This document shows, in pieces, positions 977 through 25,555 of a DNA stretch of 26,167 bases (its first letter is position 1; each line of letters starts with the position of its first letter). The notes beneath the pieces were generated by a model. The model did no database searches. It was not told the origin of the DNA and worked only from the letters and a program-made list of their open reading frames with translations. The stretch is from a virus: positions 1 through 26,167 of the IMG/VR virus record IMGVR_UViG_3300035045_000495; one strand, 5' to 3'. A program made the translations under genes and the position numbers.

Positions 977-984
977 TATTTATG
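977..984 (-). promoter_or_regulatory. T4-type late promoter element CATAAATA upstream of the fibre-like gene
   Basis: The minus strand reads CATAAATA, matching the NATAAATA late -10 element of T4-like cyanophages. It overlaps the TAA stop of the YHYH gene and ends 24 bp before the fibre-like gene ATG, so a transcript would have a leader of roughly 20 nt. The spacing is almost the same as for the element before gp25. T4-type late promoters need no -35 box. The 27 bp gap contains no terminator-like hairpin. Confidence 0.5.
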
Positions 985-2347
985 TCATATCGAAGGAAGT
1001 TGTCGAATTATCCAGTGTAAAGTTCTGTATAGTAAAGTCAGGGTTGTTATTATCCCTGTCAAAATTAACTGGAGTCATATCGTATTTTCCAATACCACTG
1101 TCAAATTTGAGGATACTGGCATAATCTATAGTCGTTCCACTACCTGTTACAGTAAGGATCGCCAAATTACTTATTAAAGGTGAGTTTTGTGCTTGAGTAG
1201 ATGCACCAACTGGACCAGTCAACACACATCTATAACGATAACCTGTCATAAATGGTTGAGCATTTATATTCAGTGTTGCTGATGTATTACCAGTTAAGTT
1301 AGACCAAGCAAATCCACCATCTGTTGATACTTGCCACTGATATGCAATAGTATCATTTTGTGGTTGTATTTCTGCTAACAAACTAAACTGTTGAAGGTTT
1401 CCACTTTGAATAGTAGCGTTTGTTGGTTGATTTGTAATTACAAGAGTAGGGGGTTGATCGGGAGTATCGCCACCATCATCAGTAGGTGGTGCAGTTTGTG
1501 TAAAACCATCATTGGCAGGTACTACCATTGCCTCTTTCGAGGTCAAACCCATCATAAAAGGAAATACTGGATTTCCAGAATTATCTTCAGTAAGAAAGTA
1601 TGCAAAAGTACCACTAGGATACTCAGGTGTTACACAATGTCTACCGTTATGTGTATCTAACTTTCCTGTTCCACCAGTATATTCATAATCTTCCATAAAC
1701 ACACCTGCGGGGTATGTTGTATCATATGCAGGTCTTCCAGGTGCTTCTTGAGTTCTTACTGTCCATCCAGAAGACATTCTGATTACAGGTGTAGTGTTAT
1801 CATTAGCATCTGTATATCCATAAGGACCATACACAGGATAACCATCAAAACTATAACCTATTATCTTAGAGTGACCATCAGGGTGTCTAATATTATCACC
1901 ATTATATTGAGATGAACCATAGTAATCATTATATCCTGCCATCACTTGATTGGCATTCCAACAATCTATGAAGTCGCTGTCGTTATAACGGTACTGACCA
2001 CTTGACTCAGGATACCCACCACAACTATCTTCTCCATAATTAACAGCAGAACCAATACCCGCTGCCACGTAGGAAAATCCTGACGGGGGCGACCCATCAG
2101 TTCCTGCACTAGGATTAAAGAAGACGACACCGTTTGCAGCAATACCAATAGCACCCAAACCGACAACCCCAGAATCAGACGTGTTTGATCCACCTCTGTA
2201 AACAAAGTTGTGGTTGAAAGCATATGATGTAATTGTGTTTGAATTGTTAGCATTAGGAAAAGTTCCTGAGTTCACTGGAGATGGCAAACCATCGCCAGTT
2301 ACTGTTAGGACATTATTGCTACTATTATAGGATCCATTTGCTGCCAT
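980..2347 (-). CDS. YHYH-domain and Ig-like-domain virion protein (455 aa)
   Basis: The gene starts 8 bp after the stop of the giant gene and is probably cotranscribed with it; no clear ribosome binding site is visible. Residues about 60-280 resemble a YHYH-family domain: a GHSKIIGYSFDGYPVYGPYGY block (His159 and following) and a DTHNGRHCVTPEYP block from about 231, followed by GTFAYF and FPFMMG. Where I would expect the family's YHYH motif, this protein reads FAYF, so the namesake histidines seem to be absent. An Ig-like domain follows at about 300-401, with an IAYQWQ strand and a Cys in YRYRCVL. The last 50 residues are Asp/Asn/Thr-rich and unassigned. There is no signal peptide or membrane segment. 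The same two modules occur in the giant protein upstream, which suggests a virion surface role and module duplication. The biochemical function of YHYH domains in phages is not known to me. Confidence 0.78.
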   Translation of the reverse strand: MAANGSYNSSNNVLTVTGDGLPSPVNSGTFPNANNSNTITSYAFNHNFVYRGGSNTSDSGVVGLGAIGIAANGVVFFNPSAGTDGSPPSGFSYVAAGIGSAVNYGEDSCGGYPESSGQYRYNDSDFIDCWNANQVMAGYNDYYGSSQYNGDNIRHPDGHSKIIGYSFDGYPVYGPYGYTDANDNTTPVIRMSSGWTVRTQEAPGRPAYDTTYPAGVFMEDYEYTGGTGKLDTHNGRHCVTPEYPSGTFAYFLTEDNSGNPVFPFMMGLTSKEAMVVPANDGFTQTAPPTDDGGDTPDQPPTLVITNQPTNATIQSGNLQQFSLLAEIQPQNDTIAYQWQVSTDGGFAWSNLTGNTSATLNINAQPFMTGYRYRCVLTGPVGASTQAQNSPLISNLAILTVTGSGTTIDYASILKFDSGIGKYDMTPVNFDRDNNNPDFTIQNFTLDNSTTSFDMT

Positions 2348-2355
2348 AAGAGTAT

Positions 2356-5300
2356 TTAGTCGTCGTCAAAGATTTGGGTAGGTGTGAAGGAACTGAGTGT
2401 TGTTGCACCGATGTTGACGGTAAGAACAGCAGCAGTTGATAGAACAGGGATTGCACCGTTAGATGTGATACCAACACGATATTCATCATTTGTATCTGCC
2501 TGTGTAGTAGCAGCAGTTGTATATGTAGAACTAATTGCTCCAGTGATATTGTTCCAACTTGATGTTCCATAATCTTTTTTCTGCCACTGATATGAAAGAG
2601 TTCCGTTGTTAACGTTAATTGCTGAACCCATATACTGATGATTACCACATACGTAATTAAGAGTAGCAGGAGCATCAGCAGCGACTGTAATGCTAACACT
2701 ACGTGTTGTAGCAGCATTAAATCCCGCAGCATATGTTGCGTAGTCTGCAACTTGATTACCGTTAAGACGATATACAACACCAGTCTCATATCTACTATTG
2801 CCACCATAAGCAGTAGCATCTTCACTAAAGTAAAGTGCGTGAGTAGCATTGGTAACATCGTTTTGATTAAACTGATATGTTGCTCCACGAACAAATACAA
2901 GTGTTGGTGCTTCAGTGCTTGAATTAAATTGACCACCAGTAAAGTTATAACCTTTTCCAGATCCTTGACCATAGTAAGGATGGTTAACAGACTTATCAGC
3001 AACATTAATTTGATAAGCAACAACATTAGATATTGTTACTTTTGCTGCAACTTGGAATGTAGCAGTCTGACCTTGGTTAACAGTAATATTTCTAGGTGAT
3101 TCAGTTATTGTTATAAAGTTCTCTATGACTCCAGTACCACCTGTTACAGGTATGAAGTTAGGATCGTAAATATCAATACCACCATTTAATGCAGGTCCTG
3201 TAGGTCCTAAGAAATCATCTGCAACAGTTGTATTTGCAACAATAGTAGGTAATGAATATCCTTGACCTGCGTTCTTAACATCAATTCTTGCTACACCAAC
3301 AAGTGCCTTAATACGTCCACCAAATCCTGTTGAAGATATAACATCAACTTGTGGTCTTGTACTATAACCATCACCAGAGTTTGTTAATATCGCATTTGTA
3401 ATACGTCCTTTTTCAATTTCAGCAAGTGCAGAAGCATTACGTCCTTTAACTGCTCCACCATACTCAAATGTAATTAGAGAGTTAGATGATTCAATAAGAG
3501 CAACTGTTCTTGTTTCTTCCTCACCATCAATGATAAGTTCATCACCTGCTTCAATAGGTGGTACAACTGTTGCTGCAATAACGTCAACATCAGAACCAAC
3601 ATAAGAGAATGCAACGAAGGTTGAACCTGCACGAGGAACTTCAGAGAAGATAATTCTAGAACCAACAATTTCAAAACCAATTCCAGGTTCCTGTATAACA
3701 CCATTTAACTGACAAATAATATTGTTCTCAGGTAAGATTGTATTTGATTGTACACCATCAGTTAAAGTCAATGAGTAGAACACTCCATTTAACTTTAAGT
3801 TGAATGAGTTACGTAATGAATCAAAGTCGAATGATATATCATCTAATTGTCTTAACTTACCTTTATATACACCGTGGAAAGTTGATCCTATAGCAGGTGC
3901 TTCAGTAAACTGTATGTTATCTGAGAATGCTGTGAATGCGTAGTCAGCACCAGGTGGTTGTAAGATACCATTCACAAAGATCATCATATGTCCTGCGGGA
4001 TCTGGGAAGTATTGTGTACCATTTCCTTGAGTTAGTTTAAATGCCTTTTGTACACCATCAAATCCTCTAAAGAATCTACGTACTCTACCTCTTAAAGATC
4101 TAGCAGATGAACAAGCACCTTTGAAACCATTGTCTCCAATAATTTGTGAGTTCTTCTGGAATGTTCCACTTGTTCCTTCTAAGTGGAGAACAGCACGAGT
4201 ACCAAACTGTGTAATCTTAGCAATCTTACCGTATGCTGTTGTATCTGTTATTGTAACTGCTGCAACTCCTGTATATACGGATGGGAATAGAGTTCCAACT
4301 GGTACTTTAGCAAGTTGATATTGTGAATTACTTGCAATATCAGAAATAGTTACACCTTCTGGAGTTCCAGTTTCATTTGCAACAAATACGTAATTATTAT
4401 TTGTATCAATCTCAGTAACAGTCACTGTCCAACCAATACTAATACCACCAGATTGAACCTGTAATACATCACCAACATTAAATGTATCAGTAACACCTGT
4501 ATCAGTAATTAACTGAACATATGTAAGTCTTGTAATTTGTCTACCGTGTACATACTCACCAAAATTAGGTAGAGTAACAAAAGATTCAATTTCAATAATT
4601 TGATCAGTAACAGATCCATAGATAACATCTTGGGGTTTAAACTCTCCAGTTACTGTGGTGATGTCGTAAGTGATTCTACCACTCTGATTATCAATTAGTG
4701 CACCGTTATTGTTTCTAACAATTAGAGCAGTTGCTTTAGATCCAGTATCTGTAGAGAAGAACTTATCAGTTGCAATAAATTCACCCTGACGGAAATTAAC
4801 AAGAAGTCTATCGTGCTCATCAGCAAATGTACAAGTACCACCAGATGTAACACCTTCTATAGTATCACCTGCTGTAAATGTTCCATTGTAATCAATCAAC
4901 TTAATATATGTCTCGTTATCAGTAGCAAGAACCTTACCAGTATTTTGAGTAGCACCTTGAACAACAACTGTCTCACCATTCTGAATCTTGATTCCAGTTC
5001 CACCACCTTGTGCAGAGAATGTATTACAGGTCATATATTTTGCCTGATACATAATATCTGCTAAATTATCTTCCATACGAACTATCTGAGCAGTAGCACC
5101 AGATGTTCCACCGTAGATAACATCAGCAAGGTTGAAACCTGCTTTGATTGGTGTTGGTACATCACGTGTTCCATAAGTTGTAGGTACACGATCTACACCT
5201 GGATCTACTTCAACAGCGAGTGTATGTAACTGTGATGCTAGACCTGGACTTAGATATATTGGTTCTCCATCAATATATTCTGTAAGAACTATCTTATTAG

Positions 5301-8300
5301 ATGTTGAATTAGGATGTACATAATAGGTTGTTCCATCAAGTTCTGGAATATTAGATCCTAGAACAATATAAGCAACTCTATCATATGGTTCAAAGTTATT
5401 AGCAACATTAATAACTCCATCATAAACAGCAACACCTGCGTCAAATTGTGTTCTTAAGTATGTTGTTGGGAATTGTGAGTATTGTAACGCAGTTAATATT
5501 AAGTGGAATAATTGATGTAACTTATGAGATGCAGTCGCAGTAGGACGTAATTCTCTATCAGGATTAGTTCCATCAAGTGAATAAAGAGGTTGGTTAGCAT
5601 TTACACCAGGATCAGGTGCAGTTCCTTTTAAGATATGATCCATCAACTCTTTAATCATTCTTGCGTGATAAAGAAGACGAGTTCTAAAGAGTGTTGGGTA
5701 TGCTACGAAATTACCATCAGCATCAAACCAAGAGTTAACTAATTGTAAAGTCCTAGCATTACCATTTGTAATGAAGTCATATACAATCGCTTTTTGTATT
5801 GGTTCAGCAAACGAAGCATCTCCTGCATAACCAGGATATTGATTTAAAGTTTTCTCATATGATTCTAATCGAGTATATGTGTCATTGTATATTAATAATC
5901 TTGCAGATTGTTTATACATCTCTGTGCCACTTCCAAGACCGTGAAGAAGTGTCTTGAATAGTACGTGTGCAGCAGATGTGACATCGTAACAAGTTCCACC
6001 TTTATATACAGTGTTGTTAGTGACAGGTGCAGTTCTGGTTATAGTTGCAAGATGACTACCATTTCCTTGAGCAGCAGTATCAATAGTATTAATAAGTATC
6101 TCCCAAAGGGTATTAATCGCTGAACTCTGTGTGGTGCAGTTTCCGTTACCTGCTGAATCGTAAGTTATAGAAACGTCACGTCTAATAGCACGTTCACCTG
6201 TAAGTGGCCATTCGAGTGGTAATGTTCTCGTAATTCCATTTAGATATGCTGTAGGATTACTTGTATTACTACTATCAAATAGATTGATAGGAATACCCAT
6301 TAATGTTGTTATAGACGCTGCTTCATTTACACAACGAACTCCACCACCACCAATAATAAAGGTTATAGCATTAGTATTAGCACTTACAAAGTTGTGAGGA
6401 TGATTACCACCATAAGATACAGCACCAGAAACAGCACTTACAAATGTATGTGGATATTGTTCGTTTGTAGGTGCAGGGTTTACATTAACCTTAATACGTC
6501 CATTCTTAAATCTAACACCTCCAGGTGCAGCAGATATGAATGTATGAGTGTAATTTCCACCTGCACTTATTGCATTTGTTGCAGCATTTACAAATGTATG
6601 AGTAGTTACGTTAGTAGATGGGATTCTTCCAGATGCTAAAACATTAACTGTAATAGTTGTTTGACCAACTGCTTTTACTTCTAAAGGAACATCATATGCT
6701 CTATCTTTCTTCCAAGTAATATTATTTGTAGCAGAAGAAACATATGTGTGTGGTGTTGTATTTGTTGAAGGTATTCCAGTAGATAATAAAACTTGAACTT
6801 TAAATGTATTTGCAGTTACATCTGAAATTTCTAACCAAGAATTAGCAGCAGGGTCAGTAGCACGTGGATATGTATGATTTGTTTGATTGTTATCTTGACC
6901 ACAAGTAAATGTTAGAGAATCAGTTGCAATCTTAATTTGATCACCATTCGCAAATCCGTGTTGAGGAACAGTCAACTGCATCATACCTGTAGTAGGTTCA
7001 TATACAGCAGCAGTGCTCTGATGTATTGTAGTTGTTGTTCTAGGATATGAATGCTCAGTAGCATTATTATCTTCTAAACAAGTAAATATTAATGAATTAT
7101 CAGCAATCTTAATGTGTGATCCAGGAACAAGACTGTGATTACCGATTGTGATAACCATATCTCCTGTAGTAGGACTGTAAACAACATTTGATGGAGTATA
7201 ATTTAGAGTATTTGTAGAACCAACGTTTACATCAAAAGTATTTGTAGCAACGTTGCTGATTGTTAGATACTGGTTTGATGCAGGATCACTAGCACGAGGA
7301 TAAGAATGTACACTATAGTTGTTATCCATTGTACAAGTGAAGTTCAATGAATTATTAACAAGTCTTATCTGATCACCATTACTAAATCCGTGTTGAGGAA
7401 CAGTCAGGGTCATAGCACCAGTAGTAGGTGAATATGTTGCTCCTGTTGCTGTAAACGCAGAATCACTAATTTCTAAAACTTCTAATGATTTACCACTAGC
7501 ATAGTCAGTAGGACGAGGATATGCGTGGTTAGTAGTATTACCATCTTTTGTGCAAGTAAATGTTATTGCATAATCTTGAGAGAACTTAATATGTCTTCCA
7601 ACATTAAGATTATTTGTACCAATATCTAAGAATAGATTACCAGTTGCTTCTTCATATATTGCATCAGTAACATCGTGAGTTCCGTTAGCAGTAGTTCCTA
7701 CATTTACTGTAAATGTATTTGTAGTAAATGCTGTAACTGGTAATAAAGCACCGCTAGAAGGATCTAATGGTCTTGGATATGTATGGTTTGTTGCATTACC
7801 ATCAAAATCACAAGTAAATGTTAATGAGTTTTGAGCAAGTTGAATACTATCACTTGTAGTTAAGTTATGACCATTAACAGTAAGTCTTAAATTACCTGTA
7901 GTTGGGAAGTATTCTACATTTGTTGGAGTTAAGTTACCAACTGTTGTATTAGTACCATCAATAGTAATACTAGAATCATATATTGCACTTCCTTCTGTTA
8001 CACCATTAATTGTAACAATCTGCTGTCTCATTATTTGTATTGCAATATCTCTTGCTTGTTCAAAGATATATTTAACTTCTGCTGCTTGGTTACTAATATG
8101 CTGTATAGCATTTCCAACTGTAATATAGAACTCACTTGAATACCACATACGGTTGTTACCACCGTGCTTTAAGTTGAATACTAATGCTTCAAGTAAATCT
8201 ACAACGTCATCAACACAAGACTGATAATTATAACCACCAGAGAATGCCAAATTAGGATACTGAGACATACCACGACCAACAGCAGTTGTAGCGATAAATC

Positions 8301-11300
8301 TTATATTATTTTCAATTTCATTTGCAGCATCATAGTAACCATTGGTTGTAGCATTATTATAGTAATCAGGTCTCTGTATTGCTTGTCCTAATCCACCTGT
8401 TGCTGCCTCACTCTCATAGGGAGTAAACCCTAAACGGTTTCTGATGGTTAGGATTGACATATCTCTTGCTAACTTAAACGCATAGATTGTCTCATCAGAT
8501 TGATTAGTTACGTGACTTAATGCTAAATCAGTATTTAAGTATAAAGCAGCAGCATCATATGTCTCGCTGTTACCACCAAAACGTAAATCGTGTGCTACAG
8601 ATTCGATGATGTCAACAATATCATCTTCACAGTTAACTTTACCACCTGGAACTCTAAACTTCTTAGATTGTGCAAACGATGTTTTAGTTAGAATATCAAC
8701 TGCTTCACCTGCAATGGTCTTAGCATTTTGCTGTAAAAGATTTGCAGCGTCAAGATCTCTATCAGATCCAGTATATGCTTTAGGATCTATTGTAATAGTA
8801 TCGTCACGATAAACAGACTCATCTGTGTATAACATCTGATAGTAATCAGAGAAATCAGCAGCGACTTGAGCAGGGTTCTCATTTCTACCAATTAATAAAC
8901 CTTGTATTGCTTTTTGTGCTAACTTCTTAGCATATTCAATAGCATCAATCATTGCAAGCAATTCATCTTCAATATAATTGATATTAGTCTCATTATCGAG
9001 ATAACTATCAATCATTGCTTGAGTTTCAAAGTTACCACCTGTAACCAAGTCACCTGCAATAGCAGGAAGTATATGATCTCTAATATCTCTTACACATTTT
9101 GCTCTATTAGGTATTGTTAGTTTATTTACTGTTGAGAAACCAACTTGTACTTGATATTTGTTTTCAATATAATATACTGCTTCATCAGCGATTGCTTTTC
9201 TATTAAAGTAAATTAAATCAGCACCATCTCTAAATCTATGACCTGTAGGACCTATAACATCTAATAGATCATCTACAAGAGTCATAATATCAGTTTGTAT
9301 CTGTGAAGATGCAGGAGATGCAAAATAATTAGGAACACGAACTTTAGTTGAATAAGTTCCTTCTAAATCTGCTTCATCTAATGTAATTACATCAATACAA
9401 AGTTTTGCAACTTCTCTCCAAGTATAGATTGATTGTAATTGCTCACCACCAATATGTTGTAATGCACCAGATCCTTCAATGTAAGCACGACCAACAATGG
9501 TTGTTTGGAAGTTACCACCTGATATAAGATCGTCAATTATAGCAGGAATAATATATGATTTAGTATCACGTAGACAAACATTAGATCCATAACCACTCAT
9601 ACCACCATCACCAGGGATGACAAAATCAGGGTATCTATACTTAAGACGACCAACTGCTTCTTCAGCAATATAGTCAATATTCTTACGTATAACTTCAGCA
9701 CATATTCTATATTCTTCACGACTAAGATCAACACCTTCAGTTGTAAGTTCAGAACGCCATAGCTCAACTTCATCAGCAGTAGCAGTAGATATTATATGAT
9801 TAACGTATGTTGCATATACTGCACTCTGTTCCATAGGGAATGGTGCTTCACCAAGAAGTGCGAATGATACATCTGTACTATCGTTAAAGATAATAGGGGG
9901 AGTAAAACTACTATTGTACTGGGAAATTCCTTTGCGGATTATAAGATTATCAATCCAACCATTGAAAGGATTACCATTGTTCCATCCTGCACCAACAGTA
10001 ATCTTACTATTTGCATTATAATTGTTTGTATCAGTGTATGTACCCATCTGCTGACCATTTACAAACAGTTTAGTAACACTTGTAGAACGAGATACTGCAA
10101 TATGATACCAGTTATTGATTGTAGTAATAGCAGAACTAACAGTAATTACATCACTAGCACCTATAGATAAGCGAAGTGACTGACCAGACATCAATATACC
10201 TAACTTAGTGTCAGAAGATGACTCTCTAAGATCAATAAGTCTCTGTGTGCCAGTAACAGAAGCAGGACGTATCCATAATTCCATTGTATAGTCACCAGTA
10301 GCAGCATCTGCTCCATCACCAAATAATACAGCATTACTTGATGGGAAAGTAGCATATGAACCAGATCCAGTAAATCTAAGTGAACCAGAATCAGTTTTAA
10401 ATGTTAATTTATCTTGAGATACGTTTGCATATGTAAGTTTAGAGTTGGTTATGTACTCACCTGCTTGTAATACACCACTAATCTGTTTAGAGAAGATCCA
10501 CTTGTTACCTGCATTAGATCCAATAACATCATATGTTGCACCTGATGTAACTGCTCTTACAGTATCACCAAATACAAAGAATCCACCAGATGATTTATCT
10601 CTATAAGCGTGTTTAGCACAACGTAAAGTTTCTCCATCCACAAAAGCATAAGGAGGAAGAACACGAGGTACATTAGTAATTGCCCACTGATATGTTGCAG
10701 GAGTGCCACCTGTAGGATCCTCTAGAGTATCAGTAATGATTCTCATATAGGATGTTATAGCATTTGCCTGATTAACACAACTGTTAGTATATCCTGCATA
10801 CGCTCCAGAAGGTGCAGTCTCAGTTACTGCTGCTTCAAATGCTGCTACTGTTCCTGGAGATGCAGTTGATCCAAGATTAGTAATCAAAATATTCATTAGT
10901 GTAGTAATTGCTGATGCAACTGCCTGACAAGTTGGGTTTGCAGGATCAGCGGTTATAGATGTATCAGTTACTTGATTCCAGTTATGAGATCCTGCTTTTG
11001 TCCAAGCATTATTTCTCATTACTTCAATAGCAATATCTCTTGCCTTAGTAAAAGCATCTACAATAGTATCTCTATCACCAGATGTTACACCATACTGTAG
11101 AGTTTTCTTAGTTGCTTTATATACAAAGTTATTACCACCGTGTGCTAAGTTATAAACCATCGCTTCAAGAACATCAACAATATCAGATAAACAATGAACA
11201 TCTCCACCTGATACGTTATATCCTGGATTTTGTGTTTTAGCATAATGTAATGCTTCATATGCAATGAACCATTTATTAGCAAGAATTAAATCTCTTGCAT

Positions 11301-14300
11301 CACCGTGACTATTGCTTATAACAGCAAACTCTTCTGTGATAGTAGGATCTCTATATTGAGGTAGATTAGTGGTAGTTGTATTAATAACTTCATTGCGGAT
11401 ACACTGTATCGCTAAATCACGTGCTTTGTTAAATGCGTATATTGTTTGTGCTACTTCACCATCAACGTGATATATTGCATTACCCTGTACATATGTACTA
11501 GCAGCATCCCAGATTTCTGAGTTACCATCAACTTCTAATTGATATGCAACAATATTTAAAATATCTACAATATCATCTTCACAATCTCTATCTCCACCTA
11601 ATGATGGAACTACAAATGATGGGAAAAATGCCTTCATTAATCCAACTGCTTCTTCAGCAATGAATCTAGCATTCTTTCTTATCAATACAGCAGCATCAAA
11701 TGAACGTTGATCGTCTACACCTACTAATGAAGCGTTATCATAGTAGATTTGTTTGTTACGTATTGAGTCACCTGCTGCAAATTGTGATCCTGACAGATAA
11801 TTATATCTAATTTCTTGGTTTCTTACCTCTTCAAAGTCTAAGAAGTCTTGGTTATTAGCAGTTCCCTCTTCATATAGTTCTTCTGGATTGATAACTGTCT
11901 CAGAAATATTGTCTAAGATAGTATTTGGATAGGTAATTGAAGGAACACGTTGGAAAATTAGACCAAAGAATGATGATGGAGGTGATAAATCAACAGTATC
12001 AATGATTTGTTGAGATACATCGTCTGTATATGGTGCAATTACAGTAACTCTTGCAGCAATTTTAGATGCAGCAGAGTATATTGTGTCGTTAAATTTGATA
12101 TTAAAGTCACCAGTTTCAAATTCAGATGTACCAGATGTACGAGAAACTACCAATCTAGCGTCTACAACACCATCTCTAAGGTTATTTTCTTCAATAATTG
12201 CAAAATCACCTTGTAAATTTGTTATTCTTTCACCTTGTTCGTAAATTGTTTTGCTAGTTAAACCAGTTACAGCACTTAATGTACCATCAAATCCACTAGA
12301 TGACGCTAAAACATTGTCACCAATCTGGAAAGTACCTTCTACATCGATAACATCAATGTAATCTACACCACTATCAATGACAGTTGCAGTTCCCTCGTTC
12401 TGTAAAGACCTTACAGGTTTACCTGTTTGTGGGAAAATACCAGATGTTGTACTAAATGTATATCTTATAATATTAATTTGAGAGAATGTAAGATTTCTAA
12501 ACTTAATTCTTGATGGTGCTTTAGGTGGTTCTGAGAATACAACAGATGGACCAGATGTTGTGAATGCAGTTCCAGGTGACTGGGCAACACCGTTAATAAG
12601 AATCAATAATTGATCATCAGTTGCAGTTACAGATTCACCTTCTACAGTCAATGGGAATTGTGTTTTAACACCATTAAAGTCATTATCAATATTATCAAGT
12701 TTTTTAACAATAGAAGTTAAGATTTCTTCAGAGTTAGTAAGTCTTCTTTGTCTGAATAATACTTCAGTGTTATTAAACTCGGTATATATTGGTTGTGAGT
12801 TAGCAAAAGATGTAATCTGATTAATATTAGTAGCACTAAAGATATTAACTTCTTTAACAAGATCAGATACAACCTTTCTTCCTGATATATCTTTACCTGC
12901 TGCAAGTGCCAATTCACCAAACATATTGAATCCAACTGGGTGATTGGTTTCAAGAATACTCTTTCTCCATTCGTTAATAGGAGTTTGTGATTTAATAACG
13001 TAAGAGAAGTTCTGATAGAAGTAAGAGTCTTGAATTTTCTGTACAATTTCAGATGGTTTACCAATGTCATCAATAAACTGACCAGTAGTGGTTGTCATTG
13101 AGTCTATATTCAATGTACCACGAGCAATAGATAAGTTATCAATCAAACCAGATGCACGAGATACCTGTGCAGTTACACGTTCTCCAACAGTCCAATTTCC
13201 GTTATAGTTTTCAAGTTTTAATATACGAGGACCAATCTGCCAACCTTCATTATCTGAAACGTAACCTGTTGCAGTAGCAGTTTCTAGGGATGAACCTTGA
13301 TATACAAGTTCTCCTTTTAAGAAACGAGATGTTTGTACAATAGCAGTTGCTTGACCACCAAATACTTCAGTAAGAAGAATCTGACGACCATCACCTTGAG
13401 TTAAGAATGTAATAAAGTTACCAGACTCAGCATCAACTTGTGTTAGTGCTATTCTAAGTTGGTCTGCTTCAAGTGAATTTGCCTCACCTGCAATAGCATA
13501 GTAAGTGGTTGTAGAACTTAAACTAACCAAACCTGCTGAACTTGGTTTTGGTAGAACACCAACTGTAGATCCTAAATCTTCTGCTCTAAGTTGAACAGCA
13601 GCACCAGTTGTAATACCGTGTGGGAAGTTAAACTGTAAATATCCTAAATCAAGGTTTACAACATAGTTAAATTCTGACTTAAGTGTAACTGATGGTTCAG
13701 AACTATATCCAGATCCAGGATTTTTAATTATTATTTCAGATAGTCTATTATTTTTAACAATCGCTTCTGCTTCAGCACCTGATCCACCACCACCTTCAAT
13801 AACAACTCTAGGAATTGATGTATAACCAGAACCAGGATCTGTAACCTTAATTTCAGAAAGTATAGCAGTATTAAACAACTGAAGGTTTACAGGGAATGTA
13901 ATCTCAGGTCTTAGTGTATAATCGTGAGAATAACCGAAACCAAATTCATTATTTTTAAGTTTCTTAATCTTACCAATACTTGTACCTTGTAAGAACACAG
14001 ATGCACCAGATCCCTCAGCAGGAATTACAACATCAAGTTGTCCACCAGAACCTTGTAATAGTGATCCCAATATTCCTGGAATAGTATCAATATCAATAGA
14101 TGCAGTAGTATATCCTTTACCTGGAGATGTTAATTCAACAGCAGTAATAACACCTGTTAATTCACCATCATCTGCAACTGTAATATTACATAGACCACCT
14201 TCACCATCTCCTGCAATAGGAACATTATAATAGATGCCATTAATGTATTCTGTACCACCAGATATGATACGTATTTTCTCAATTTCTCTATCAGATGATA

Positions 14301-17300
14301 TATCAGTAACAATAGGTAATTTCTGATAGAAACCACCTGGGTTTACCAGTTTGATACTTGCAATAGGACCAATCGCTTTTAGAGAAGTTGTACTATAAGA
14401 TGCTCTTGTAAGACCTGTTTCAGTTGTTCCTAAAGGAGCAGTTGTTTTTTCTGGTTCTACAAGAAGTGGGAATGTAAATTCTGTATCTGATAATATCTGA
14501 TTAATATTAAATGTTCCTTTATAAGGAGTTTCTATAACGTCAATAAATGATGCTTCACCTACAGGAGAGTTACTTGGAAGAGTTCTTGATGGATCGAAGT
14601 AATATGAAATATTGGTAACATCTTCATCAACAATAAACTTAACAAGTGGTTTAGGTGATGTTTGGTCAGTTAAACCTGGGATACCCTCTCTAACAATGTT
14701 TACAAAAGGATATTCTAATTTATATTGATTATCCTTAGAGAACGACATATAATATCCAAAATTAGATGGATCATCAAGGTCAAATATGTATTGATGTTTA
14801 CGAACAAATAATAATTGTGGATGTTTAGCGTAGATATTAACACTTGCAATAGTAGAACTTGTAAATGAAGGATCTTGTACAGCAGTTGATCTTAAACGAT
14901 ATAAGAATCTTCTACTATCAAGAACCTCTTCTACAAAGAATGATCCACCATATTCAGTTGTTGTAAATCCTTCAACAAATATAATTTCGTTTTGAGTAAA
15001 ATTATGCCTACTTGTAGAAACACAGAATACTAAATCTGTAAATGCTAGAGCACCAGTTGGAATAATATCTTTATCAAGATTCGATGTAAGATGGAATTTC
15101 TTAACTCCAACTAAACCTGATATTGTTATTATCTTTCCAGTAGCATCGAATGTTGCTGAAAGACCAACAGCGTCAGCATCAATGTTATCACCTTTAATAA
15201 ATGCTGATCCCTCATATACTGCTTCAATTCTAATTGAGTAATCTGTTGCTACAAATGGTCTCCAAGAACCAAATTGATTTAATGTTCCACTAGAATATGA
15301 AGTATTTGCAAGATCTATATTAAAACTACCTGCATCACGAGTATATACCCAGTTTATATTTCCATCAGTTACTGTACCAATCGTATGAATAGGAGCACTA
15401 GCACCAGAAACTCCAGTAGAACCTGCTGTATAGATCTTACCTGCATTATAAACTTCATCTCCAGTTGTATAACTGAAGTTTGTAAACCATTGAGGTATAG
15501 TTGTTTCAACTAAAAATGTTTGATTAATAAGGTTTACATCATTTGCAGTTGATTTTAATTTCTTAGTAGTATCAAAATTACCAATAATATTACCAATATC
15601 AACCTGTCCTTGTGCTCCACGAACATTTACAATAGTACCGTATGCACTGACTACATCTTGTCCACCAATAACTGAATACTGTTGTAATATAGAACCTTTA
15701 GTAAAGTTTGCTGTTTGGTTAAATGTTACTGTCTTTACAGTATCAATAGACTGATATATTGCATCACGAATATAGAATTTAGGAATAACAGTAGTGCTTA
15801 GTAGTAGTTTTCTACCAAGAGGTGTTGGGATAGTAGCAGTTCTAGTCTCATATATCTGATCTGTAGACGTAAATGAGTAAGTTCCTTCAACATTATTTGA
15901 TACAACATCAGCATAATCAAGTATTTGTAGACCCGCAGGACCTAATGTCCAATCTCCAGAAGTAATCACCTGGGTATTAAACGTAAAGTCGTTCACAGCG
16001 GCTGCGACTTGAATCTGCATACCAGTTTGAACGGTGTTTAATGTATATGTTCCAGTCTTAGTTTGTTCTCTATCTAACTTGTAGCAGAAAGCAGATACTG
16101 TTTTATTAGAACCAACTGCTTGTGCAGGAGTAAATGTATCACTATATTTTGCAATACCTGATACAGAAATATTATCTACCCAACCACCAATAGAACTAGC
16201 GACAACAGGAGATGATTTACCAAATAATAGTATAGATTTAAGTTGTGTATCTATAGTTGTACTTGTTACATCAATTTGTTCAACACCATTGATGAATACT
16301 TTATAAACGTAAGTACCAACACCAGGAGTTGACTTAACAAGAGCAACGTGTATAAATGCTTCGTTATTAAATGTTGTCCAGTTAGTTGTGGTTGTAGATA
16401 GGTAAGTATTAGAACCTAACTTTAAACGAACTTTACCAAAATCAGGACTTGTAGCATCACCTTCTAGTTCTACAACTGCATTATCACCTGTAGTAGGAGC
16501 AACATCAAAAATATTTGGTGTAGAACTTTGAGCATTGTATTGTGCTTGCCCAATAGCGATCCACGCTTCAATAGTATAATTTGTTGCTACATCAGCACCC
16601 CAGTCTAACGATAGTCTATTCGCAGCAGCACTGATATTTGCTGACTGTGCACCATATTTCCATTTAGAAGTATCTAATGTAGGATCTACAGACCATCCTG
16701 CTGTTAAAGTATTATTATATGTTTCATCTCCAGTTATAGTTGATTCAAAATTGAGTATTGCTAATTCATTAGATTCAATTTTATTACCTGCAATAATAGT
16801 ATCACCAGAATTATCGTTACTAATTGTAGTTGGTTGGAAACCAATACCACTAACCTGTTTTACAGAAGCAGCAGTTAATATATTACTTGTATTCCAAGAA
16901 ATCTTGAATATGATTGCTCTATGATCATTGAAAGCATATTTAACGTATGCACCAACATCAATATTACCAAATATATCAAATTTAACTCCAGTTGATTGTA
17001 TATCTTCAAATACACCAGTAGGTGAAAGTAATTTAACAACTGATGGAGTTTTGTAATCACTAGGTGCAAACTTCATATACAAAACACCAGTATTCTTGGT
17101 ATTAGAAATTTGGTATGCAGTTGCAGTTACGTATCTAGAACCATAGTCATCAATAGTAATTTTAGGATTAGAGAATCTATATCCAGTATTACCAAACTGT
17201 CTACTCCAAGAAACGTTAATAGTTACATTATCATAGTTAGTTTCACCAATAATAATTTCACTCGTTCCCGCAGGATCATTAACACCAACAAATATACAGG

Positions 17301-20300
17301 TGTTATCACTTGTAAATTTAAGGTCTGTTAATTGTTCTGATCCTGATGCAGTACATATCTTACGTTTTTCTTTAATAGCACCCTGTTCATCTAACAAAGC
17401 AATCCACATATCATCTGGATTTGGAGAGTTAGTATCTGTTGTACCACCAACGTATATTTGACCGTTATCATCTATAGTTAAGGATGATATATAATCTCTT
17501 CTTGAAGAACCAGATATACCTGCAATTTCACGTTGCCATACAGGAACAGCAGTAGGATTGTTCTGTGCATCAAATCCAGAGGTATATTTGGCAACAACTA
17601 GGTCTGGATTGTATGATAAGTTGACATTATTAGGAATTGTTTCACCAACAACGTAGATAGAATGTGGTGATGTGTTTTCAAGATAAATTCTGTTAAATAC
17701 ACAACGTTTATCTCCCGCAGCAGGTTGTAGTGGTGCCATTGTACGTGTCCACAACAATCTACCATCACTATTGAATTTTGCAAGTAATCCTGCTGAATCT
17801 CCATCAACATCATCTGCTTCACCGACAACATAGAATGTTCTATCATCAGCAGTAACAATATCTTTAAGTTTTACTATTTTCTCAATACCACTACTCTCAT
17901 CTAATAATGTAAGAGCATAATTTGCTTTTTTATATCTTTGTGGATGACTTACTCTAACTTCTGGTGGATTGCTAGGTGTATATTCTGATCCAGAGTTAAT
18001 AATATTAACTGTATTAACAGCACCAGATTCAAGTTGTACAAGTTCTAATTTAAAATCTTGACCAGTTCCTGTAACAATTTCGTAAGTTGGTGGAATATCA
18101 TCATTATATCCAAGACCTTGTTGACTAATATTTACTGTTTCAACACCAGATACAACTTTTACTCTAAATGTTTTGTTTGTTTGATCAATAATAGGAATAC
18201 TATCAACAATAATTTCATCATTAACTCTTAAATCGTGTTCACCAGTAGTTGTAATCTTTGCTAACGGTGAATCATTAACCATAGATGAAGTGTACTGACT
18301 GACATCAATACCTTTTACAGCATTTACTTTAGCAGATGCACCATATCCACCAGTTCCTGTATCGTCAAAGAACAACTTATCATTAACTTTATATGATATA
18401 CCTGGGTTTTCAACTACAAATCCACTAATTTTAGCATCTTCAAATTTAGTAGTAGTATCAATCTCAATATCAACCTGTGATCTAGTAGATACACTAGGGT
18501 AGTAATCAAATAATTGCAGTACAGGTTCTTCTGAGATATAATTTAATTCGTTTTCTTCTTCTGTTGATATAACACCATCTCTGTTAGTATCTTCTATTTC
18601 AAAGATAAACTCGTCACCTATCTCAGTTACAAGAGTATCTGTATCTTGGTTAGGTGTACGTTGAATATCAATGTCAACATCTTCATAAGGATCACGGAAT
18701 CTAACAACATCAAGAGGAATATTGGTTTGTACAGCATCTTGACTATAGTTCCATTCGTCAGGTCTTGAATATAATTGTGGTCCACAGACATATGGGAATA
18801 CAGGTAAACCTGCTTCTGATGCGTCAATGGAAACAAAATAAGCATAAGTTCCTTCAGGATATTCAGGTGTCTTACAATATCTACCATTATACTGATCTAA
18901 ATCACCTGCTTGGAACACATACTCATAATCTTCTATATAAGTTCCTGCGGGTTTGTCTGATAATAGTGGTCCATCAGCACGAACTGGATTTGGATTGGTT
19001 GCACTGTCAAATAATAACGCAGGTTTTACTCTGTAAGAAGATACACATCTCTTAATACCAGATGACTGATCAGCAGCATCAATATAACCATATGGTCCGT
19101 ATATTGGGTTTCCATCAAATGCCCAACCAATAATAGGAGAGTGTCTTAGTCCTGCTGAAAGTTCTCTAAGATTTCCTGATGATGGATCTTTAAATACATT
19201 ATCACCAAGAACATAACGTAATTGTTTAGGATCTGATAAATGTGCATATTCACCACCATATTGTGTGTTATATCCTGCAAATACATAACCACGAGAAGGA
19301 TCCATTAGTCCTGATAGTTCAGTTTCTAAGTTCTGTGTCCACTCAAATACATTTGCAGTAAATGATGCACCTTGACCAATAGATTCACAACGAATAGTTG
19401 TAAGACCAGTTGAATATCCTATACCTCTGTTCTCAACAGTAATACTTAAAACACGTCCTTTATCTTCACCAAATGTTCCTATGGTTGCTTTTGCAATAGC
19501 ACCATAACCATCACCATTAATAATTACATTAGGAGGAGATGTATATCCACTACCTGAGTTAATAATAGCGATTGATACAATACGACCATTGATAATAATT
19601 GGTTGTGCAACAGCACCTTCACCAGAATTTAATTTAATATTAGGTGCAGTTGTATAACTTGATCCTGCTGTATCTACACTAATAGATTGAATAGGACCTC
19701 TTACCTCGGCAGTAGCAGTTGCACCTGTTCCATTGCCTCCTGAGATGCTTACAGTAGGTGCTGAGGTGTACCCTTGACCAGGTGTTTCAACAAGAACTTT
19801 ACTTACAACTCCATTTGTAATAACAGCAGTTGCAGTAGCACCAAATCCACCTCCACCAACAATAGAAACTAATGGAGATGAGGTGTATCCAGAACCACCT
19901 GCTGTTACATCAACATTAAATAAAGAACCATTTACAACAACACTAGCAGCAGCACCAGATCCACCACCACCACTTATTTCAATTAATGGTTTAGAAGCAG
20001 CGTCATATCCTTCACCTGCATCTACAATATCAAAACTTGTAATTCCACCAAATTTTGTCTTAATTTGAGACTTATAAGACCAAACAGCAACACCATTTAC
20101 CCAACATCCAATAGGACCAAATGATAAATCATCACGACGTGATACAGTATCAACAATTCTAGGAAATCTACTTAACTTTCTTTGGTTTCCTGGGAGTAGA
20201 GCAGACCCAATGAACGGACCAACTTTATAGTTTGGAATACCTGTTGTAGCAATATAAGAGTAATTTGAGTTGAAGAACGTATTTTGTACATTAGTTGTAA

Positions 20301-23300
20301 ATTGTGCGATAGAGTTATTGATTGATTCTTCATCTGATTTACCTTTATTAAGGTCAACAGACATCAAAATGTTACCTTGAGGTGAATTAGGTGCAGGAGC
20401 AGATATTTGATATGAGAATACAGTAGCACTAATACGAGAAGTTACAGAAAACGTACCGTTAAATATCGTTGGGTTTGCACCATAGATTGTTACAGAGTCA
20501 CCAACAAGAAGACCGTGATTATTTGTAGTGTAAACAGTTGCAGTCTGGTTATTAAGACCACCTGGTTCAATATTGTTTACAGAGATTAATTTTTTAACAT
20601 TATATAACCAAGATGTAACTCTCTGATCTGTAGATGAAGAACCAAGAGATGCTACGTTTAATTTGTCACTAGGAAGATAATATGAACCAGTATCAGTAAG
20701 AACTGTTCCTGTTGCTTCAGCAATACCAAGAACACGTAATTTTACTTCAGTATCTAGTCCTCTATTGATATAACAGAAAATATCAGAGTAAATTGGAGTA
20801 CCAGAATCCCAATCTTCTACAATACCATTTTTAGAACGTGTACACTCAATAAACTGGTTTAATGATTTTTCTTTATATTGTATTCTTTCACTATCACCCA
20901 TAATGATGATACCGTTTCTTTCTGGCCACCCAATAGTAGAGTCAACAGTTATAATAGACTCAGTTGTCGTTAGTGGTTCTACAAGAGTGGTTTTATAAGG
21001 TATTGAGAACTTACCTTCTAAAGTTTCCTCAGATATTGATAATTCATAGATTGTTCTATCACCAGTGTTGATTGCAATAACGTTTTCAACTAAACATACA
21101 GCATTTCCAACAGTTGTATCTACAGCATCTGCATATTGGAATAATTGAGAGTCTAAAATATCAACTGGATTACCACTTATCAATTCAACACGAATAATAG
21201 TGTCAACAGACCAAGTTGCAGCAGATGGTTTGATTAATTCATCTTTTGGATATGAAACATCAACATTTTCAGAGAATAATATTTTAAATAAGTATTCTGT
21301 AGCAGTTTTTGTACCTTTAGAGACATAAAAGTCTTTAATTGTCTTAACAATCTGTGGAGCGTTGATTGTAGTGTAATCAATATCAGCATCAGGTAAGAAT
21401 TGATTTACAAAACGTTCATATAGTGTTTTTGCAAATAAAGAATCTAAATTTTCTATAGAAGTTCCAACTTCGTGTGAAGATTGAATACTTTGTGCTTCAT
21501 TAGTAAATACTTGGTTTCCTCTAATATCATATGAAGAAACACCAGAAACTCCTCTTTTACAATTCTTAAATTGTGATGGTTGATATTCAGAACCGTGTGA
21601 ATGAACTGTAAAACCAGTTATTTCTTGAAATCCAACATCACAAGACGCTGCTGCTGCTTTTGGACTTGCGATAAAGACTTGTGGAGGTTCAGTATCAGAA
21701 TATCCATCACCAAAACTTGTTATATTAATATCAGTAATTTCACCATTGAATATTGTTGCAACAGCAGTTGCTCCAGTTCCACCTATTGCTTCACCAGATA
21801 AATTCTTTCTATTATCAACAATATAAACAGATGGTGCATCATTGTAACCAGATCCACCAGTTAAAAGTTGAATATCAGTTAATTTACCACCAGATACCTT
21901 AACATCAAGTATTTGAGCACCTATAGGATCAATAATACGACATCTAGGAGGAGTTACATATCCTCTACCAGGAGAAATCATTTCAATCCTGTCTACTCTG
22001 CTCTGATCATCTAAAACTGCTATGGCAGATGCTCTAATACCAATAGGATCAACAGGAGCATCAATATAGACTTCTGGAGCAGTTGTATAATGTAATCCTT
22101 TAGTTAATACTTGGATAGATCCATCAACTACCTTTCCTTCCGAGTCAATTTGAGCATCACTAATAGTTGCACCTGCTGCATTTGTAAAACTAATGGATGG
22201 AATAGTGTCATATCCAGATCCAGATGATTGTACGTTAATTCCTGTGACTTGACCAGTAGCATCATCAACAGTTACAGTTGCTTTTGCTATAGAACCAGAA
22301 GGATCTGCGGGTGTATCAAATACAACTACAGGAGGGTTAGCAGAAGTATAACCTTGACCACCATCAATTAATTGTACATTCTTAATACCATTTACAAGTG
22401 CTTCAGCAGTCGCTTCTTTACCAGTTACACCTTCTGGAGTAAGAATAGTTACTTTTGGTGTGAAATTAATTCTATAATCTTGACCACCATTTTTTACAAT
22501 TAAATCTGTAACTTTATTATCACTAACTCTAGCAATAGCAGAAGCACCTTTACCAAATTGAGGTGCAATTAGTTCAACAGACCTTACAGTAATCTTATCA
22601 TTTAAAGATACTGCTTTTTTTAGTATTAAATGATCATTATAAACTGTGTAGTCAGTAAATGGTTCTTGAACCACTCCATTTACAGCAATCAAACAAGATA
22701 CTGTAGATAAAGGTGTATATACAACAGTGTTTAACCTTAATGGAAGTATTTTTGCACCTACAAGGTCGTCAGTTATATTAATTACATCTAAAACTCTAAC
22801 AGGAACACTTGTATAACCTATAAGATATTCAATCTTAGTTACTGTAGTTGATCCTGCAAGGTTTGCAGGAGGAGTTTGGAATCTAATGTTTGATCCATCA
22901 AGAAAATAATCAACATTAGGTTCTAACTGCAAACCATTTATTATAACACGTAAATACTCAACAGAACTTGGTGTAATTGGAGTTCCAAGTAGTTTTAATT
23001 GGAAACTTGTTTCAGTTCCATCAAATAGAGGTCTTATATTTTCTAACTCTTGTATTTTCTTATCAAATTCTAACTTATTGACACCTGGAGTAAATACAAC
23101 CTCTGGTGATTTAGTTGTTTCTTCATAAAAAATAATTTCATTATCAATCTTTATTGTTCCATCTTTCTCAAGAAAATTATCAACAGTTTCTACAGTAATA
23201 TTTTGATCAGTAGCACCTATGCGATCTAAAACAATAGATGATGAAGAAATAAAGTTAGGATCATATTCGTCACTTGAAATATCTGTATAACTTAAAATAT

Positions 23301-23461: not shown

Positions 23462-25555
23462 TTAGAAGCAAGTGTCAAACTCAGGGTATTCAAATACCGT
23501 GGTTGGATAATCAATTATATTTATCGAGGTTCCGTCAAAGTTAATTGGAGTAAAGTCTAACGGATCGAAGTTTGGAATATTAGTTCCATCAATGGTGTAA
23601 TCTATAGTAATTACTTGTGGGTTGAAAATAGTAGGATCTACACCAGTTCCTATATTTACATTACCACTATCTAGCAGAACTGTAACAGGAATACGTGTTG
23701 TTCCATCAGGAGTACTTGCTACGTCTATAGGACCTAAACAAACTTCTCCAGTTTTATAATCTACGGTTCCAACACCAGATTTAAGAATAACTTCTTTTTC
23801 ATCAAGTTTTGTAACCATTATCAAACTACCTCTACCATCATCTCTTACGTTTACTGGTAAAAGTGCACTAGCATCATTTTCTACAAATGTACTGATACTC
23901 AATACTGAGTTTGTAGTTAGTTGTTGAGATGATACAGCAAGATCTAGTAAATTTTCTGTATAACCTGTTGAGTAGAATGTACCAGTCTTTACTGATGAGA
24001 AATTAGGACTACAAGTTATTCCTCCAGATGAGTCAGAAGGATTACCTGCACCAATATCACCAGGATTAACTATGGAGTTACCAAAGTCTACACACTGAGT
24101 AAATGTGCTTCCAAATGGGAATCCTGTAACATTTAAACCAAGAGTCATAGTGGTTTGATTACCAACTATGGAATTTTGTGACTGGTCGATCATTGTTTGG
24201 AACGCAGATCTATCAATTCTTCCATTAAATCTATTTGCAGATCCTTGAGTATTGTACTCATCAATAGCACCTAGAACTCTAGAAGCAAGTTCATTATTAG
24301 AAAGTGTTGTTGAAGTACCATCAAAGAACACATAAGTCTTAGGACGTATGTATAGAGTTGTAGGATCGATAATAACTGGTTCGATCGCTGCCATAGAGTA
24401 TTTCAACAAATCATTCTTAATACGCTTCTTAGTAGTTGCGTTTAATGCAGCACCAGACTTAGTTTTTACAGCAACAAAGACCTTTCCGTAAACTGGTGGA
24501 TAGATTCTTTCTCCACCATATGCAGTAACAGACTTTGCTTGAGGATAAACCAGTTTAGTAATGTATTCATAGTCGGACTCCGTGACTGCTCTGTTTTGAG
24601 CACTGAATGCCCTTGGAGCATTGTACTTGATGGATATAACATCTTCTCCCATTTCACCGTCCTGAGAGGCATCTACGGTCGCTAGAGAGATGTTAGCAGA
24701 TGATACAGCACGACCAGTATTATCTCTTACTTGACCTATAAAAGTAAACTTCTTACAACCATTTGCTTCTGGTCCATCTGTTCTAACATATTTCAGTCTT
24801 ATAACCTCACCTGCAATTAGTTCTCTACCAATAACACCATCACCAAATATAATTGTATATCTTAAATCGTCAGTTTCTTCTAAGAAATATCCACGAGTTG
24901 TTCCGTCAACATTAACAATATTTGTAATTTGGTTATAAGTGTCAATCTCTTCACTCTGAGCGTTAGGTGAAATAGACACATAAAGTAAGTCTGTATCTAT
25001 GTTGTCAACAGGAATTTCATATTTTCTTTTTTTAACATCAACAACATCATACTCATATGAAAGTAAGTTTCCTTGATATATGATTGTTTTGTTAAAAGAT
25101 GCAATACCAGTCTGTTGATCTACCATTTGAGTGATCTGTTCTGGAACAGTAAATGTAAATGCTTGACCATCAACAGATGAAACAAATACATCACCCGCAG
25201 GAATAGTTACAGTAGATGGATAAGTGGTACTAGCACCAACAAATGTAGTTTGTACAGAAAAAGCAACACACGCTTTTGCTGCTTTTATTGATCTAGGTGT
25301 ATAATTTAACTGTTTTGCTATCTTTACTACGTTGTCTCTTATTGTTGCTGACTCTAAAAATGCTTCGTTCATCGCCATATTAGCGTTGAAAGCAGAATAA
25401 TATGTATTATATGCTAGTACGTCTAGTAGATATGAAGCAGCAGAACCTTCAAAATCGTAATCAGTGAACTCAGTTCGAGTTCTCATATAAGATTTGATAG
25501 ATTCTTTTATTTCCGAAAAATCTAAAGAAGTTAAATTTGAGGGTATTGCGGGCAT
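23462..25555 (-). CDS. 6: Baseplate wedge protein gp6-like (baseplate J-like), 697 aa
   Basis: This is the T4 gp6-type wedge protein, which as a dimer links neighbouring wedges into the baseplate ring. Visible family features are the N-terminal TDYDFEGSAASYLLDVLAYN and TYYSAFNANMAMNEAFLESA blocks (residues about 30-70), FGDGVIGRELIAGEVIRLKY at about 236-255 and NAPRAFSAQNRAVTESDYEY from about 310, the hallmark of the baseplate-J-like core. The length is close to T4 gp6 (660 aa), with a longer Phe/Asp-rich C-terminal tail. The ATG at 25553-25555 follows the gp25 TAA directly; a GGAG 9 bp upstream (25565-25568), inside gp25, supports this start. The two genes are very probably translated from one mRNA. 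Confidence 0.93.
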   Translation of the reverse strand: MPAIPSNLTSLDFSEIKESIKSYMRTRTEFTDYDFEGSAASYLLDVLAYNTYYSAFNANMAMNEAFLESATIRDNVVKIAKQLNYTPRSIKAAKACVAFSVQTTFVGASTTYPSTVTIPAGDVFVSSVDGQAFTFTVPEQITQMVDQQTGIASFNKTIIYQGNLLSYEYDVVDVKKRKYEIPVDNIDTDLLYVSISPNAQSEEIDTYNQITNIVNVDGTTRGYFLEETDDLRYTIIFGDGVIGRELIAGEVIRLKYVRTDGPEANGCKKFTFIGQVRDNTGRAVSSANISLATVDASQDGEMGEDVISIKYNAPRAFSAQNRAVTESDYEYITKLVYPQAKSVTAYGGERIYPPVYGKVFVAVKTKSGAALNATTKKRIKNDLLKYSMAAIEPVIIDPTTLYIRPKTYVFFDGTSTTLSNNELASRVLGAIDEYNTQGSANRFNGRIDRSAFQTMIDQSQNSIVGNQTTMTLGLNVTGFPFGSTFTQCVDFGNSIVNPGDIGAGNPSDSSGGITCSPNFSSVKTGTFYSTGYTENLLDLAVSSQQLTTNSVLSISTFVENDASALLPVNVRDDGRGSLIMVTKLDEKEVILKSGVGTVDYKTGEVCLGPIDVASTPDGTTRIPVTVLLDSGNVNIGTGVDPTIFNPQVITIDYTIDGTNIPNFDPLDFTPINFDGTSINIIDYPTTVFEYPEFDTCF
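23518..23525 (-). promoter_or_regulatory. Possible internal late promoter GATAAATA for the giant gene
   Basis: The minus strand reads GATAAATA, an exact NATAAATA match, inside the last 65 bp of the gp6-like gene and 75 bp before the giant gene ATG. It could give the 21 kb gene its own late transcript. It is less certain than the other two because it lies in coding sequence (encoding Ser-Ile-Asn-Ile-Ile) and farther from the start. Confidence 0.3.

What the first reader, a model, noticed from the sequence alone, without database searches (positions are those of the whole stretch)
2356..23442. A single 7028-residue phage structural protein in the gene 7 position
An unbroken 21.1 kb frame is present between a gp6-like and a YHYH gene in a T4-like baseplate cluster. 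T4 gp7 is about 1030 residues, so this would be nearly seven times longer. The modules (propeller, LamG, YHYH, Ig, cupredoxin, helical repeats) resemble a bacterial giant adhesin built onto a phage baseplate. A folded or fibrous protein of this size could extend far from the particle. That no stop occurs in 21 kb of AT-rich DNA argues for strong selection on the full length.
Basis: partly seen in the sequence, partly recalled or inferred. Interest (0 to 1): 0.78.

Follow-up and report, generated by a model that had tools for sequence, protein, structure and literature searches.

The report
Giant phage baseplate protein, phycobiliprotein-like repeats
The 7,028-residue protein is real but is a standard-sized part of the tail baseplate of viruses that infect marine cyanobacteria; what appears undescribed is that part of it consists of repeated domains related to the light-harvesting pigment proteins of the host.

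Summary
The 21.1-kb frame is real. The same 7,029-codon frame recurs at 100% identity in two other contigs and at 96-97% in a third. It is under even purifying selection (dN/dS 0.11-0.21 per 500-aa window against the nearest relative). It lies between gp25-gp6 and YHYH-gp9/10 genes and carries the gp7 core motif of T4. It is not unusual: this is the giant gp7-type baseplate protein of cyanobacterial T4-like phages (Kyanoviridae, phrog_701), 4,400-9,900 aa in relatives. The 6,619-aa orthologue of phage S-SZBM1 was already seen by mass spectrometry in virions.

Six copies (aa 3909-5149) are homologous to phycobiliproteins: Pfam PF00502 above its cut-off, profile-profile E 1e-9 against none of 50 shuffles, and all 50 listed PDB fold matches for each of two AlphaFold models are phycobiliproteins. 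The bilin-carrying cysteine and a nearby aspartate are among the most conserved positions in 558 phage repeats. The repeats occur in about 350 cyanophage records and are absent from the T4, SAR11 and rhizobial relatives tested. No paper found describes them. Most likely they are captured host domains reused as modules of a long baseplate appendage. Pigment binding is possible but unproven.

The parts
2356..23442 (-). giant gp7-type baseplate wedge protein, 7,028 aa
   Evidence: phrog_701 over most of its length; dN/dS; identical frame in independent contigs
20563..21525 (-). gp7 core region (aa 640-960); motif DFYVSKGTKTATEYLFKILFSENVDVSYPKD at 21241-21333
   Evidence: hhalign to T4-like gp7 family, score 53.4, E 5e-6, shuffled columns at most 22.7; PF23786 Baseplate_wedge weak, below cut-off
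19408..19980 (-). glycine-rich GxGYTSxPxVxIxGGGGxGAxAxA repeats (aa 1155-1345)
   Evidence: repeat HMM
18823..19266 (-). YHYH domain inside the giant (aa 1393-1540)
   Evidence: PF14240, 105.6 bits; 72% DNA identity over 120 bp to the neighbouring YHYH gene
17431..17832 (-). beta-propeller repeats (aa 1871-2004)
   Evidence: PF06739 SBBP above cut-off, DUF5122 below cut-off
9943..10338 (-). LamG/concanavalin-like domain (aa 4369-4500)
   Evidence: PF13385, 85.5 bits
11365..11718 (-). phycobiliprotein-like repeat 1 (aa 3909-4026; Cys3954, motif CEDD)
10984..11322 (-). phycobiliprotein-like repeat 2 (aa 4041-4153; Cys4084, motif CLSD)
9352..9720 (-). phycobiliprotein-like repeat 3 (aa 4575-4697; Cys4623, motif CLRD)
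   Evidence: PF00502; AF2 and Foldseek
8875..9240 (-). phycobiliprotein-like repeat 4 (aa 4735-4856; Cys4783, motif CVRD)
   Evidence: NCBIfam phy_ery_CpeA 24.5 bits, below its equivalog cut-off
8410..8772 (-). phycobiliprotein-like repeat 5 (aa 4891-5011; Cys4938, motif CEDD)
7996..8352 (-). phycobiliprotein-like repeat 6 (aa 5031-5149; Cys5076, motif CVDD)
6826..7989 (-). five tandem repeats of about 80 aa with one FTC motif each (aa 5152-5539); mostly inside a block of about 430 aa (aa 5252-5681, 6400-7689) that close relatives lack
2599..2910 (-). cupredoxin-like module (aa 6845-6948) with H...C-x2-H-x2-M; absent from this place in sibling loci L020 and L021
   Evidence: sequence motif and homologues; no Pfam or PDB sequence hit
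2413..2598 (-). C-terminal Ig-like segment (YQWQKKDYG...)
   Evidence: sequence similarity among phage tail proteins
25556..25969 (-). gp25 baseplate wedge protein
   Evidence: PF04965, phrog_261
23462..25555 (-). gp6 baseplate wedge protein
   Evidence: phrog_219; hhalign to T4 gp6 probability 100%, E 4e-46
980..2347 (-). YHYH virion protein
   Evidence: PF14240, phrog_25852
2..952 (-). gp9/gp10-type fibre connector, cut by the contig end
   Evidence: PF07880; hhalign to T4 gp9 and gp10 about 96%

Best explanation
The gene encodes the gp7-type baseplate wedge protein of a cyanobacterial T4-like phage (Kyanoviridae). The N-terminal part (to about aa 960) carries the gp7 core that joins gp6 in the wedge (shown by profile and synteny; the binding itself is inferred). 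The other roughly 6,000 residues are a chain of modules (Gly-rich repeats, YHYH, propeller, LamG, phycobiliprotein-like repeats, Ig/cupredoxin) that probably radiates from the baseplate and works as a fibre or adhesin (inferred). The six helical repeats descend from a host phycobiliprotein captured by an ancestral cyanophage and then multiplied (homology shown, direction of transfer inferred). They keep the pocket half of the fold with its bilin-site Cys and Asp. They lost the Arg and Tyr that in true phycobiliproteins help the alpha and beta chains pair, so they now most likely serve as compact structural or binding modules rather than light-harvesting subunits.
For: Giant gp7; virion presence of the orthologue in PMC9146016. 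Phycobiliprotein homology: PF00502 32.3 bits against a 22.2 cut-off; single-repeat phmmer against PDB with 35 of 37 hits phycobiliproteins or proteins engineered from them; profile against PDB best E 4e-7 with all 60 listed matches phycobiliproteins or relatives; hhalign against 117 cyanobacterial phycobiliproteins 96%, E 1.3e-9, score 56.7 against at most 17.9 in 50 shuffles; AF2 of repeats 3+4 (pLDDT 81) and of repeat 1 (pLDDT 81), each with all 50 listed PDB matches phycobiliproteins, query-normalised TM up to 0.65 for repeat 1. Cys 470/485 and Asp 483/499 kept in 558 unique repeats. Cyanophage-only distribution. The same repeats occur in other tail-fibre-type ORFs, which fits an appendage role.
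Against: No structure or microscopy of this protein. Foldseek E-values are modest (0.017-0.04) and Foldseek uses sequence as well as shape, so it is not fully independent of the profile result. Sequence similarity is strong only over helices A, B and E. Convergence cannot be formally excluded. The direction of transfer was not tested with a tree because the alignable part is too short and divergent.
Confidence: 0.8

Rival explanations
1. Chromophore version: the repeats covalently bind a bilin at the Cys84-equivalent, made by the host or by the phage's own bilin reductase, so the baseplate carries pigment groups for light sensing, photoprotection or stabilisation.
For: C-x-x-D is among the four most conserved columns of 157 non-redundant repeats; repeats 3 and 4 keep the full C-x-R-D motif. 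The 112-kb contig with the identical giant encodes a phycocyanobilin:ferredoxin oxidoreductase (209.4 bits against a 206 cut-off). CpeT-type proteins occur in 15 of 23 records searched. Repeat-bearing Prochlorococcus phages have a bilin reductase (5/5) and Synechococcus isolates do not (0/5), as expected if phages supply the pigment where the host does not.
Against: In P-SSM4 all three repeats lack the Cys although the phage has a bilin reductase; P-SSM2 has the reductase but no repeats. The Arg is kept in only 55% of repeats. Invariant Arg93 and Tyr97 equivalents are lost. The host split is confounded by ecology and phylogeny.
Confidence: 0.12
2. The repeats only converged on the phycobiliprotein fold and motif; they are unrelated helical bundles.
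For: C-terminal third of the repeat aligns poorly; Foldseek E-values are modest.
Against: Unanimous hit lists from sequence, profile and fold searches, shared N, PGG and C-x-R-D positions, and a host-lineage-restricted distribution.
Confidence: 0.05
3. Not one mature protein: the product is processed or split into smaller parts in some phages.
For: In metaG-MbCM1 the homologous region is three ORFs in one frame separated by single stops.
Against: MbCM1 is a metagenome-derived record, so the stops may be errors; the other relatives with a complete gene have one frame; the MS table lists S-SZBM1_208 as one entry of 724 kDa (71 peptides, 13.5% coverage), though positions of the peptides are not given in the text.
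Confidence: 0.1

Closest known systems
Giant gp7-type 'baseplate wedge initiator' / virion structural proteins of Kyanoviridae (phrog_701; S-SZBM1_208, S-WAM1, P-RSM6, P-TIM40, ACG-2014d)
   Same: position, N-terminal 1,000 aa at 47-56% identity, size class 6,600-8,600 aa, virion protein
   Different: module order and content of aa 4000-7028 vary; a block of FTC repeats and the cupredoxin are gained or lost even among close relatives
T4 gp7 (1,032 aa)
   Same: gene order gp6-gp7 and the DFYxSKG...FLFxxLxxE core motif
   Different: the giant is seven times longer, with the T4 C-terminal core lying near the N-terminus of the giant
Phycobiliprotein alpha/beta subunits (PF00502)
   Same: helices A, B and E by profile, overall fold by AF2/Foldseek, Cys84 and Asp87 equivalents
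   Different: about 118 aa instead of 160-177, alpha-beta pairing residues lost, tandem in one chain, no evidence of pigment
Bacterial giant adhesins (LapA/BapA type)
   Same: very long multi-module chain
   Different: baseplate gene context; only a sub-threshold BapA_N match

Membership tests
T4 gp7 baseplate wedge protein | encoded directly after gp6 in the baseplate cluster | tested here: met
T4 gp7 baseplate wedge protein | sequence-profile similarity to gp7 | tested here: met
   short core only: E 5e-6, score 53.4 against at most 22.7 shuffled
T4 gp7 baseplate wedge protein | forms the (gp6)2-gp7 wedge heterotrimer | not testable with these tools
   needs a structure or binding data
Kyanoviridae giant gp7-type protein (phrog_701) | profile match over most of the protein | tested here: met
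   E reported as 0 in all three pieces
Kyanoviridae giant gp7-type protein (phrog_701) | present in the virion | not tested
   published for the S-SZBM1 orthologue only (PMC9146016)
Phycobiliprotein family PF00502 | curated Pfam score cut-off | tested here: met
   32.3 bits against 22.2 on the 2,528-aa piece; the single repeat 3 scores 19.4, below it, and only 7 of 25 single repeats match at E 0.1
Phycobiliprotein family PF00502 | globin-like phycobiliprotein fold | tested here: met
   predicted models; all 50 listed PDB matches are phycobiliproteins, twice
Phycobiliprotein family PF00502 | bilin-site Cys84-Arg86-Asp87 | tested here: inconclusive
   Cys and Asp 97%, Arg 55% of repeats; full motif in repeats 3 and 4 of the window
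Phycobiliprotein family PF00502 | alpha-beta pairing residues Arg93 and Tyr97 (C+9, C+13; role from own knowledge) | tested here: not met
   100% in 117 cyanobacterial phycobiliproteins, not kept in phage repeats
Phycobiliprotein family PF00502 | covalently bound bilin | not testable with these tools
   needs spectroscopy or mass spectrometry
Bacterial giant adhesin | adhesin-type domains such as BapA_N | tested here: not met
   17.1 bits against cut-off 27
Cupredoxin | family profile match | tested here: not met
   no Pfam hit; no PDB sequence hit; ligand-type motif present only

The most novel reading that the evidence does not exclude
Cyanophage baseplates carry dozens of phycobiliprotein-like domains that bind bilins, supplied by the host or by phage-encoded bilin reductases and lyases. 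That would make the virion a pigmented, possibly light-responsive particle and would give a function to the phage bilin genes, whose role has been called a mystery (PMC3037559).
Probability: 0.1. Interest if true: 0.92.

Novelty: new variant of a known kind. Interest (0 to 1): 0.6.

Why it matters
The giant protein itself is known. That hundreds of sequenced cyanophages, including classic isolates such as S-PM2 and Syn9, build tail proteins from domains related to their hosts' antenna proteins seems not to be described in the papers searched. It is a striking case of viral reuse of a photosynthesis protein as a structural part. It also makes an old question testable in the laboratory: whether the bilin reductase and CpeT genes carried by these phages have a phage protein as their target.

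Tried and rejected
Chimeric assembly: rejected by identical frames in independent contigs. Tandem DNA repeats inflating the frame: none found. gp8 identity of the YHYH neighbour: no profile similarity to T4 gp8. Coupling of repeats to bilin genes by co-occurrence: confounded by host group, with exceptions P-SSM2 and P-SSM4. Direct sequence search of the C-terminus and of the N-terminal 1,000 aa against PDB: nothing useful. A family tree of repeats against host phycobiliproteins was not attempted: about 60 well-aligned positions at roughly 20% identity cannot carry it. Paper searches for phycobilisome or phycobiliprotein domains in cyanophage virions found no description; most subscription papers and all preprints are missing from that library.

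Full report
WHAT IS THERE. The window is a 26,167-bp virus fragment. The minus-strand ORF 23442->2356 encodes 7,028 aa. Upstream are gp25 and gp6, downstream a YHYH virion protein and a gp9/10-type connector. Third-position GC is uniformly low along the frame and the chance of a stop-free run of this length is about 10^-233. Three other contigs hold the same 7,029-codon frame, two at 100% and one at 96-97%. dN/dS is 0.11-0.21 per 500-aa window against the 97% relative, and still 0.14-0.35 at 65-72% identity.

IT IS A KNOWN KIND. The N-terminal 1,000 aa match 481 phage records, nearly all cyanophages, plus a few rhizobial, Pelagibacter and Methylophilales phages. Orthologues in the same place are 6,619 aa (S-SZBM1), 6,737 (S-WAM1), 7,351 (P-TIM40), 8,573 (P-RSM6), 6,818 (ACG-2014d) and 4,446 (P-HM1, annotated gp7); frames of 9,243 and 9,914 codons occur in metagenomic contigs. 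PHROGs models it as phrog_701 (6,136 positions). The 724-kDa S-SZBM1 protein was identified in CsCl-purified particles with 71 peptides and 13.5% coverage (PMC9146016).

IS IT GP7? hhalign of the N-terminal region against a T4-like gp7 alignment finds one core segment: DFYVSKGTKTATEYLFKILFSENVDV (aa ~704-729) against DFYSTKGIEASYKFLFKVLYNEEVEI in T4 gp7 (score 53.4; best of 30 column shuffles 22.7). gp6, gp8, gp9, gp10 and gp11 give nothing. With synteny this supports gp7, with the T4 C-terminal core lying near the N-terminus of the giant and about 6,000 residues added behind it.

THE HELICAL REPEATS ARE PHYCOBILIPROTEIN-LIKE. Six repeats of about 118 aa (aa 3909-4026, 4041-4153, 4575-4697, 4735-4856, 4891-5011, 5031-5149) share N...IA.EA...YP...PGG....C..D...GGN. 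Evidence: PF00502 at 32.3 bits against a cut-off of 22.2; NCBIfam CpeA at 2.8e-5, below its equivalog cut-off; one repeat against PDB gives 37 hits of which 35 are phycobiliproteins or proteins engineered from them; a 25-sequence profile gives E 4e-7 to phycocyanin alpha, with all 60 listed matches phycobiliproteins or relatives; profile-profile comparison with 117 cyanobacterial phycobiliproteins gives 96.4%, E 1.3e-9, score 56.7, while 50 column shuffles reach at most 17.9. AlphaFold2, without templates and with phage sequences only, folds repeats 3+4 (pLDDT 81) and repeat 1 (pLDDT 81) into helices that match phycobiliproteins in all 50 listed PDB hits each time. Foldseek E-values are only 0.017-0.04 at best and the method also uses sequence; the strength lies in the unanimity and in TM-scores of 0.6-0.65 over the query for repeat 1.

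CONSERVATION AND DISTRIBUTION. The invariant Cys of the repeats aligns with the bilin-carrying Cys84. Over 558 unique repeats it is Cys in 470 of 485, Asp at +3 in 483 of 499, Arg at +2 in 271 of 492. Arg at +9 and Tyr at +13, 100% conserved in phycobiliproteins and, from general knowledge, used for alpha-beta pairing, are not kept. Repeats occur in 317-350 phage records, all cyanophage apart from one labelled 'Marine' in one of the two searches, also in other tail-fibre-type ORFs. They are absent from T4 and two other T4-like phages, from Sinorhizobium phage phiM12 and from Pelagibacter phage HTVC008M, a Kyanoviridae member with another host; P-SSM2 is a cyanophage without them. This points to acquisition from the cyanobacterial host lineage and spread among tail proteins (inference).

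HOW IT MOST LIKELY WORKS. The core anchors in the wedge with gp6; the long modular tail projects and contacts the host. Module turnover supports this: relatives 90-97% identical lack a 430-aa block of FTC repeats, and siblings lack the cupredoxin-like module at this place. S-SZBM1, which has this protein, is reported to lack long tail fibres (PMC9146016). Surface location and receptor binding are inferred.

PIGMENT? The phage of this window encodes PcyA on the 112-kb contig with the identical giant. Prochlorococcus phages with repeats carry bilin reductases (5/5) and Synechococcus isolates with repeats do not (0/5). But P-SSM4 has the reductase and no cysteines in its three repeats, and P-SSM2 has the reductase and no repeats. 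Pigment binding is therefore an open, cheap test and not a claim.

VERDICT. The finding as written is a new member of a known family and modest in interest. The phycobiliprotein-like repeats raise it: no description was found in the papers searched, and the homology is well supported.

Noticed in passing
L008:20001-39767 (metaG-MbCM1): The giant is split into three ORFs in the same frame separated by single in-frame stops; metagenome-derived record, so either errors or a real split.
   Followed up: partly
window 6400-7689; L012, L014, L018: A block of about 430 aa with tandem FTC repeats is present or absent between phages 90-97% identical elsewhere.
   Followed up: partly
window 2599-2910; L020 and L011 downstream ORFs: Cupredoxin-like modules with H...C-x2-H-x2-M recur in several virion-type proteins of these phages; copper binding untested.
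   Followed up: partly
window 1592-1711 and 18832-18951: 120 bp at 72% DNA identity: the YHYH domain of the giant and of the next gene are close relatives.
   Followed up: no
L391-L392 (IMG/VR 3300030107_001446): A 9,914-codon frame of the same family, the longest in the records searched here.
   Followed up: no
L389 (same phage as the window, 112-kb contig): Phage-encoded phycocyanobilin:ferredoxin oxidoreductase of 205 aa.
   Followed up: partly
L381 (P-SSM4) and L382 (P-SSM7): These Prochlorococcus phages have wholly or partly lost the repeat cysteine.
   Followed up: partly
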